Positions 25,949-27,471 of a stretch of 64,000 nucleotides of DNA are shown one piece after another (position 1 is the stretch's first letter; each line of letters begins with the position of its first letter). The position numbers were made by a program, and so were the translations under genes. The DNA is from Bifidobacterium breve (lineage in GTDB: Bacteria; Actinomycetota; Thermoleophilia; Solirubrobacterales; Solirubrobacteraceae). The stretch lies in NCBI GenBank assembly GCA_945881845.1, contig CAMCVN010000003.1, positions 1 to 64,000 of the forward strand, given 5' to 3'. The notes under the pieces were generated by a model. The model was not told the origin of the DNA. It saw only the letters and a program-made list of their open reading frames with translations, and did not search any database.

Positions 25949-26083
25949 CTAATTCAGGCCTGATCCTTCGATTCCGTCGCGATCAAGGATTGCGTGGCGT
26001 TCCCGTGGTGCTTTCGCGTTCCTTAACTCTTCAGCGAGTTCGGGGTTGTCTCTATAGGCTTCCGTCAGGGGATCAGAACTCAT
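25949..26083 (-). CDS. Short leader-like peptide, copy 1 (44 aa, truncated): MSSDPLTEAYRDNPELAEELRNAKAPRERHAILDRDGIEGSGLN
   Basis: Manual translation; homologous to the ORFs at 26463-26690 and 27016-27264; below the ORF-track cutoff; stops where the variable region begins in the other copies. Confidence 0.65.
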   Translation of the reverse strand: MSSDPLTEAYRDNPELAEELRNAKAPRERHAILDRDGIEGSGLN

Positions 26084-26462
26084 CGGTTAGCTCCATTCGC
26101 CAATTACTTAGCTGCTGCGCACCTGCGCGCTGTCAACACGCAAGCACACAGATCACGGTACCAAGGCCCGCAGCACAGATCCGACCCTCATCCAGGGCTG
26201 ACCAGCAAAGCGGCGCCTTGCCGCCCGCTGCGCCGAGCCCGAACCGACTAGCTGAACGATCACGCCGGCAACGCGACCCAAGGAGCCACGCAGCAACGGC
26301 TCTGGCAATACGTTCAGCGCTGGTATAGCTGAGTACGCAGCGGACTACACGGCCACGTGAGAAACACCAATGCGATGGAAACCGTAGACCAGCCCACAAC
26401 ACGACCCGCCAAACCGGCTCAGGCGCGACCCGGTACACCCGATTCACTACGCGAAATCATCC

Positions 26463-26690
26463 CTAACCTTCGAATTCGCCTTCGTCGGGTTCTGACGCTA
26501 CAAAAACGCCGCGGGTAAACCCCGGTTCCAGACCGCCACTTGCTTCGGGGAATTGTGAGTCGAGGCCTGGCTTTTCGATTCCGTGGGCGTCAAGAATTGC
26601 GTGGCGTTCGCGTGGTGTTTTTGCGTTCCTTAGCTCCTCGGCGAGAGCTGGGTTGTCTTTCAGGGCCTTCATCAGGGGATCAAAACTCAT
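26463..26690 (-). CDS. Short leader-like peptide, copy 2 (75 aa), putative precursor peptide with GG-delimited variable C-terminus
   Basis: MSFDPLMKALKDNPALAEELRNAKTPRERHAILDAHGIEKPGLDSQFPEASGG|LEPGFTRGVFVASEPDEGEFEG; GGAG RBS; upstream TTGACA-N16-TATCGT. Confidence 0.75.
   Translation of the reverse strand: MSFDPLMKALKDNPALAEELRNAKTPRERHAILDAHGIEKPGLDSQFPEASGGLEPGFTRGVFVASEPDEGEFEG
26548..26639. repeat. 92-bp perfect direct repeat (other copy at 27122-27213) within peptide genes
   Basis: Identical 92-nt string encoding most of NAKTPRERHAILDAHGIEKPGLDSQFP. Confidence 0.9.
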
Positions 26691-26763
26691 CGGTTAGCTC
26701 CATTTGTGATTGGGTTAGCTGCTCTTCCACCTGCGCACCATCAGCACACAAGCGCGCGGCGCG

Positions 26764-26791
26764 ACGATACCAGCCGCCACAACCCTGTCAA
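26764..26791 (-). promoter_or_regulatory. Putative sigma70-type promoter of peptide copy 2 (TTGACA-16-TATCGT)
   Basis: -35 at 26786-26791, -10 at 26764-26769; same arrangement conserved upstream of copy 3. Confidence 0.6.
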
Positions 26792-27015
26792 CCCAGCGAA
26801 CTAGGCGGCCACGTGAGCACCAAACGACGTGGCACGAGAATCTGGATTTACGTACTCAAACCACGACAAATCACTGCCTACACCATCAAACCCAACCGAC
26901 ACGAGGCCTCAGGCAACGTGGGAGGCGCCAGGGCGATGGCGAGGCAAAACTAGGAGTTATTTTGTCGGTGGTTAGTGGTCTTGCGCGACCCAACCCGCCG
27001 GTCCAACAACACCCA

Positions 27016-27264
27016 TTATTGAAACAAGCCCGGGGTCATCGTCGAATACGACGAGCCGCCCGAAGGCCTCTGAACCATTATCCATCCCGGTCCCCTCGGT
27101 CCCTTTACACCGCCTACTTCCGGGAATTGTGAGTCGAGGCCTGGCTTTTCGATTCCGTGGGCGTCAAGAATTGCGTGGCGTTCGCGTGGTGTTTTTGCGT
27201 TCCTTAGCTCCTCACGTAATTCGGGGTTCTCTTCCAGAGCCTTTATCAGTGGATCAAAACTCAT
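27016..27264 (-). CDS. Short leader-like peptide, copy 3 (82 aa), putative precursor peptide with GG-delimited variable C-terminus
   Basis: MSFDPLIKALEENPELREELRNAKTPRERHAILDAHGIEKPGLDSQFPEVGG|VKGPRGPGWIMVQRPSGGSSYSTMTPGLFQ. Confidence 0.75.
   Translation of the reverse strand: MSFDPLIKALEENPELREELRNAKTPRERHAILDAHGIEKPGLDSQFPEVGGVKGPRGPGWIMVQRPSGGSSYSTMTPGLFQ
27122..27213. repeat. 92-bp perfect direct repeat (other copy at 26548-26639)
   Basis: Identical string by eye. Confidence 0.9.
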
Positions 27265-27335
27265 CGGGTGACTCCATTCGCCTCGTAGTTAGTGGATCTT
27301 TACCTGCGCACCATCAGCAGACAAGCACACGCGCC

Positions 27336-27363
27336 ACGATACCGAGGGCCCCAGCCCTGTCAA
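27336..27363 (-). promoter_or_regulatory. Putative sigma70-type promoter of peptide copy 3 (TTGACA-16-TATCGT)
   Basis: -35 at 27358-27363, -10 at 27336-27341; conserved with copy 2. Confidence 0.6.
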
Positions 27364-27397
27364 CCAGAAGCCACAACCAACCCGCCCCGCAGCGGAA

Positions 27398-27471
27398 GGT
27401 GAGTGACGGGACTCGAACCCGCGACCGCCTGGACCACAACCAGGAGCTCTACCAACTGAGCTACACCCACC
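27398..27471 (-). tRNA. tRNA-His (anticodon GTG)
   Basis: GGTGGGTG.../CACTCACC with the extra G-1:C73 pair typical of tRNA-His; loop TTGTGGT. Confidence 0.95.

What the first reader, a model, noticed from the sequence alone, without database searches (positions are those of the whole stretch)
25949..27363. Tandem array of three paralogous short peptide genes with conserved leader and completely different tails after Gly-Gly: candidate orphan RiPP/double-glycine precursor family
Seen: copy 2 is MSFDPLMKALKDNPALAEELRNAKTPRERHAILDAHGIEKPGLDSQFPEASGG|LEPGFTRGVFVASEPDEGEFEG. Copy 3 is MSFDPLIKALEENPELREELRNAKTPRERHAILDAHGIEKPGLDSQFPEVGG|VKGPRGPGWIMVQRPSGGSSYSTMTPGLFQ. The DNA can be aligned up to GGC GGT (Gly-Gly) and is unrelated afterwards. 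Copy 1 has the same N-terminus but stops where the tail would begin. Established: conserved leader, GG and hypervariable core is the hallmark of Nif11-like/NHLP and other double-glycine RiPP or bacteriocin precursors, and the leader xNPELREELRxAKTPxERHAILDAHGI loosely resembles the Nif11-type pattern. Inference: these are multi-core precursors for a maturase or exporter encoded elsewhere. The cores lack Cys, which argues against classical lanthipeptides.
Basis: partly seen in the sequence, partly recalled or inferred. Interest (0 to 1): 0.88.

Follow-up and report, generated by a model that had tools for sequence, protein, structure and literature searches.

The report
Nif11-like leader peptides with swapped tails
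A freshwater actinobacterium carries ten copies of a small gene with one shared front end and a different short tail in each copy; it is most likely a family of exported peptides whose active end is replaced wholesale at a fixed seam, with none of the three commonest peptide-modifying enzyme families found in the genome.

Summary
Copies 2 and 3 (26463-26690 and 27016-27264, minus strand) share promoter, ribosome site and leader, then differ completely after Gly-Gly. Copy 1 (25949-26083) is a relic lacking ~71 nt that its orthologue in G042 keeps. The genome has ten copies at four loci. Leaders are 88% identical in DNA under purifying selection (dN 0.06, dS 0.44). Cores are 12-45 residues, Cys-free (12 expected) and aromatic-rich (45 against 24). 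At one orthologous position in two species DNA is 92.6% identical up to the last Gly codon and unrelated beyond it, so cores are replaced, not merely diverged.

Leaders match only Nif11 in Pfam, just below cut-off. In a related MAG a copy lies 52 bp behind NHLM_ABC1 and NHLM_ABC2; G033 has the whole exporter with a C39 peptidase. No LanC/LanM, YcaO or SPASM radical-SAM gene was found in G000 or relatives. The exporter is absent from the window's own assembly.

Best reading: leader-guided, C39-cleaved export peptides with interchangeable, probably unmodified cores. "Nif11-like double-glycine precursor" is supported; "RiPP" is not. The canonical motif before Gly-Gly is missing, so cleavage is unproven.

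The parts
25949..26083 (-). copy 1: degenerate leader, 44 aa, no Gly-Gly and no core; deletion relic
   Evidence: lacks ~71 nt present in the orthologue L034:4651-4848
26463..26690 (-). copy 2: 75-aa precursor
26532..26690 (-). copy 2 Nif11-like leader up to Gly-Gly (53 aa)
   Evidence: PF07862 21.1 bits, cut-off 23.8; helices 5-12, 14-22, 26-35 in the model
26466..26531 (-). copy 2 core LEPGFTRGVFVASEPDEGEFEG
   Evidence: no similarity to other cores; low model confidence, pLDDT below 50 from residue 49
27016..27264 (-). copy 3: 82-aa precursor
27109..27264 (-). copy 3 Nif11-like leader up to Gly-Gly (52 aa)
   Evidence: PF07862 22.8 bits
27019..27108 (-). copy 3 core VKGPRGPGWIMVQRPSGGSSYSTMTPGLFQ
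26764..26791 (-). promoter-like TTGACA-16-TATCGT upstream of copy 2
   Evidence: 2 sites found, 0.4 expected; conserved upstream of most copies
27336..27363 (-). promoter-like TTGACA-16-TATCGT upstream of copy 3
26698..26701 (-). GGAG ribosome-binding site of copy 2
   Evidence: sequence; conserved ATGGAGCTA block
27272..27275 (-). GGAG ribosome-binding site of copy 3
   Evidence: sequence

Best explanation
Each gene is an independently transcribed precursor: own promoter, a three-helix Nif11-like leader of about 50 residues, a Gly-Gly seam and a short disordered core. The constant leader delivers every precursor to one shared exporter of the NHLM type (C39-peptidase ABC1, ABC2, HlyD-like protein), which removes the leader and secretes the core. 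Because only the leader is recognised, cores are free to change, and they change by whole replacement at the seam as well as by fast substitution. The cores are probably not modified by the usual RiPP enzymes and act outside the cell as bacteriocins or signals. Shown: gene family, leader homology, purifying selection on leaders, core constraints, core replacement at an orthologous site, exporter genes in relatives. Inferred: export, cleavage, absence of modification, activity.
For: Ten copies, nine intact; 15/16 match only Nif11. Leader dN/dS 0.060/0.441. Core length CV 0.35, about 1e-5 under random stops; 0 Cys in 399 codons vs 11.9 expected and 45 aromatics vs 23.7 expected. Orthologous first copies beside the sigma-factor gene in G000 C26 and G033 C60: 92.6% over 391 nt ending at the Gly-Gly, unrelated after. 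Orthologues G33d/G46: leader dN 0.025/dS 0.22, core dN 0.28/dS 0.31, core DNA 77% vs 97% downstream, P 7e-8. L036: copy 52 bp after NHLM_ABC2 (622 bits), which follows NHLM_ABC1. G033: ABC1 778 bits with Peptidase_C39 91.6 bits, ABC2 625 bits, HlyD-like. No PF05147, PF02624 or TIGR04085 match, controls positive.
Against: Exporter not found in the window's genome (92.8% complete). The site used in G033 and G046 falls on a contig break in G000, but G042 has one copy and an empty site, G045 a filled site and no detected copy; presence of leader and exporter correlate only weakly (P 0.09). The stretch before Gly-Gly lacks the canonical hydrophobic helix motif, and four copies read GR or AG at the seam. 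Leaders score below the Pfam and NCBIfam cut-offs.
Confidence: 0.66

Rival explanations
1. True RiPP precursors: an unrecognised or distant maturase (P450, ATP-grasp, epimerase, other radical SAM) modifies the aromatic-rich cores before export.
For: Most described Nif11 precursors serve LanM, YcaO or other modifying enzymes that may be encoded far away (Haft 2010). Cores are aromatic-rich. G043 has a two-domain Nif11-like ORF beside a cytochrome P450.
Against: No LanC/LanM, YcaO or SPASM match in seven genomes; nothing enzyme-like in the G033 exporter cassette or visible beside the precursor loci read; no Cys in cores.
Confidence: 0.22
2. The promoter-leader unit is a dispersed repeat; the tails are chance read-through of whatever DNA lies downstream and have no function.
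For: Copies sit between genes, three loci beside tRNAs. The tail of one copy (L011:3485-3535) overlaps, on the other strand, the end of a reverse-transcriptase-like remnant. Counting terminal stops, tails are not poorer in stops than other frames.
Against: Core lengths far less variable than random stops give; zero Cys and a near doubling of aromatics against shuffles; a recognisable core kept in two species; leader under purifying selection; copy linked to NHLM genes.
Confidence: 0.07
3. Small cytoplasmic proteins with a Nif11-like domain and variable C-terminal tails that act inside the cell, not exported.
For: No exporter in the window's assembly; no canonical C39 recognition motif (PMC6363468).
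Against: Linkage to the NHLM exporter in L036, exporter in G033 and G046, seam and hypervariability as in exported Nif11 precursors.
Confidence: 0.05

Closest known systems
Nif11-derived peptides N11P (TIGR03798) with the NHLM exporter trio (TIGR03794/03796/03797), Haft et al. 2010, PMC2887384
   Same: Nif11-like leader, paralogous expansion, end of similarity at Gly-Gly, short hypervariable core, adjacency to NHLM ABC1/ABC2 in one relative
   Different: Below the model cut-offs, no canonical hydrophobic helix before Gly-Gly, cores without Cys, no linked maturase, order Solirubrobacterales by the titles of relatives
Prochlorosins ProcA/SyncA (PMC10783134)
   Same: Many dispersed and tandem precursors with one leader and unrelated cores served by shared machinery
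   Different: No LanM in any genome checked, no Cys in the cores
LahT and LahA1-9 (PMC6363468)
   Same: One C39 exporter serves several Nif11 leaders with diverse cores
   Different: The leaders cut by LahT carry hydrophobic residues at -4/-7/-12; these do not
EbfG1-4/PteB double-glycine secreted proteins of Synechococcus elongatus (PMC4997328)
   Same: Small Gly-Gly proteins secreted with the help of a C39 peptidase
   Different: No link to a Nif11-like leader or to core replacement was established here

Membership tests
Nif11 / N11P (PF07862, TIGR03798) | score at or above the curated cut-off | tested here: not met
   PF07862 at most 23.2 bits vs 23.8; TIGR03798 at most 20.3 vs 32.3
Nif11 / N11P (PF07862, TIGR03798) | homology to the Nif11 domain | tested here: met
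   15 of 16 members match PF07862, best E 1.1e-4; the only other family is one match at E 0.15
Nif11 / N11P (PF07862, TIGR03798) | conservation ends at Gly-Gly, hypervariable core follows, paralogous expansion | tested here: met
Nif11 / N11P (PF07862, TIGR03798) | double-glycine recognition motif with hydrophobic -4, -7, -12 | tested here: not met
   SQFPEASGG / SQFPEAGG: -4 is A or E, -7 is F or Q, Pro within; GR or AG in four copies
NHLM export system substrate | precursor next to NHLM ABC1/ABC2/HlyD genes | tested here: met
   L036 in the CANFDS MAG only; G033 and G046 have the exporter at a separate locus
NHLM export system substrate | C39 exporter in the same genome as the window | tested here: inconclusive
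   no match in G000; the known integration site is a contig break there
RiPP (lanthipeptide, LAP, SPASM-type) | LanM/LanC, YcaO or SPASM radical-SAM maturase in the genome | tested here: not met
   other maturase classes not searched
Lanthipeptide / prochlorosin | Cys in the core | tested here: not met
   0 of 399 core residues
Unmodified double-glycine peptide | cleaved, secreted, unmodified core | not testable with these tools
   needs peptidomics

The most novel reading that the evidence does not exclude
A promoter-plus-leader cassette that is repeatedly given new reading frames at a fixed Gly-Gly seam, so that exported peptide cores arise from unrelated or even antisense DNA: a bacterial system that continually creates new secreted peptides without modifying enzymes, guided by a leader that lacks the classical C39 motif.
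Probability: 0.25. Interest if true: 0.78.

Novelty: new variant of a known kind. Interest (0 to 1): 0.55.

Why it matters
It carries the leader/core logic of Nif11 precursors to Solirubrobacterales MAGs (no paper in the held library names both) and to genomes without the common maturases, which bears on how far the leader serves export rather than modification. Two species with the same locus and different cores behind a 92.6% identical leader give a clean case for studying how peptide cores are replaced.

Tried and rejected
Viral relatives: two tblastn hits (L015, L016) are chance; L015 reads like a WhiB protein. Maturase search: three families, none found. C39 in the own genome: none. Foldseek of the precursor model against PDB: no match at E 0.001 or better. 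Leader-exporter co-occurrence across the genus: P 0.09, not conclusive. Reverse-transcriptase driven diversification: only one degenerate remnant at one locus (RVT_1 18.6 bits, cut-off 29.6), no intact RT sought, so not claimed.

Full report
WHAT IS THERE. The three genes lie on the minus strand at 26083-25949, 26690-26463 and 27264-27016. They repeat as a 185-nt unit. The two intact copies have the only two promoter-like sites in the region, TTGACA-16-TATCGT, about 74 nt before the ATG, and GGAG ribosome sites. The block from promoter to leader is conserved in most of 19 copies compared. The window's genome (G000, 2.07 Mb, 66 contigs, 92.8% complete) holds ten copies: three here, four on C26, two on C1, one on C2.

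LEADER AND CORE BEHAVE DIFFERENTLY. Over the nine intact copies leader DNA is 88% identical, with dN 0.060 and dS 0.441; identity after the seam is 26%. Cores are 12-45 residues long; the length spread is too narrow for random stops (about 1e-5). They have no Cys in 399 codons where shuffles give 12, and 45 aromatic residues where shuffles give 24. The tails are therefore constrained as peptides, though counting terminal stops the reading frame is not unusually open. AlphaFold gives three helices in residues 5-35 and low confidence from residue 49 on; no solved structure matches.

CORES ARE REPLACED, NOT JUST MUTATED. The C26 array of G000 and the array of G033 (L031) lie between the same sigma-factor and HxlR-type genes. 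Their first copies align at 92.6% over 391 nt, ending at the last Gly codon; beyond it the two cores score no better than shuffled sequence. One orthologous pair in G033 and G046 keeps a recognisable core; there the leader evolves slowly (dN 0.025, dS 0.22) and the core fast (dN 0.28, dS 0.31), and core DNA is 77% identical while the DNA just downstream is 97% identical (P 7e-8). Copy 1 of the window aligns with the single copy of G042 (L034) but lacks about 71 nt carrying the end of its leader and its core; copies 2 and 3 are absent from G042.

DISTRIBUTION. Leaders of this family occur in 5 of 232 genomes of the order, all in one genus of 54; one of the five, G043, has only a divergent two-domain form. 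A further MAG named only as Actinobacteria (CANFDS) has three. Record titles of relatives name Solirubrobacterales.

FAMILY. 15 of 16 members match Pfam Nif11 and essentially nothing else, always under the gathering score (23.2 against 23.8 at best); TIGR03798 gives at most 20.3 against 32.3. The match covers the helical part and not the stretch before Gly-Gly, which reads SQFPEASGG or SQFPEAGG and lacks the hydrophobic residues at -4, -7 and -12 that the Nif11-processing C39 peptidase LahT uses (PMC6363468).

EXPORTER. In the CANFDS MAG a copy starts 52 bp after NHLM_ABC2 (622 bits), preceded by the end of NHLM_ABC1. G033 has HlyD-like, ABC1 with a C39 domain (91.6 bits; Cys, His and Asp visible in the sequence) and ABC2, without an enzyme gene, between an alpha/beta-hydrolase and fumC. 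In eleven other genomes of the genus the two flanking genes are directly adjacent; in G033 the cassette is flanked by a repeat of about 25 bp of the hydrolase 3' end. In G000 no such exporter was found, but the hydrolase is cut by the end of contig C32 and contig C18 starts inside the last codons of that gene. Whether G000 carries the exporter is open. Haft et al. argued that NHLP leader conservation follows the exporter rather than the modifying enzyme (PMC2887384); a family without the common maturases would fit.

MATURASES. LanC/LanM, YcaO and SPASM radical-SAM families gave no match in seven genomes while the controls rang. P450, ATP-grasp and other classes were not searched, so 'unmodified' is an inference.

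VERDICT. A new variant of a known kind: Nif11-like leader peptides, probably exported by an NHLM system, with Cys-free cores that are exchanged at a fixed seam and no evidence of modification.

Noticed in passing
L011:3181-3527 (G000 C26): Frameshifted reverse-transcriptase-like remnant (RVT_1 18.6 bits, E 0.0017) beside the four-copy array; its 3' end overlaps, on the other strand, the core of the last copy.
   Followed up: partly
L084:3877-9442 (G033 C103): NHLM exporter cassette inserted between an alpha/beta-hydrolase and fumC, flanked by ~25 bp repeated from the hydrolase 3' end, lower GC3 than its neighbours; site empty in eleven congeners.
   Followed up: partly
L085:570-8762 (G046 C215): A second NHLM-like system: HlyD, ABC1 matched only without its peptidase part, ABC2, and an S8 (mycosin-like) protease nearby.
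   Followed up: no
L035:2214-2672 / L020 (G043): 152-aa ORF with two divergent Nif11-like domains beside a cytochrome P450 gene.
   Followed up: no
L030:7654-10427 and L036:1-3567 (CANFDS MAG): Lower-GC3 stretches with precursor copies inside very high-GC3 contigs: horizontal transfer or chimeric assembly.
   Followed up: no
L014:9461-17506 (G000 C2): Several similar secreted pentapeptide-repeat proteins in tandem next to the single C2 copy.
   Followed up: no
window 27397-27471; L013:9272-9344; L030:10397-10468: Precursor copies lie beside tRNA-His, tRNA-Gln and tRNA-Arg genes.
   Followed up: no
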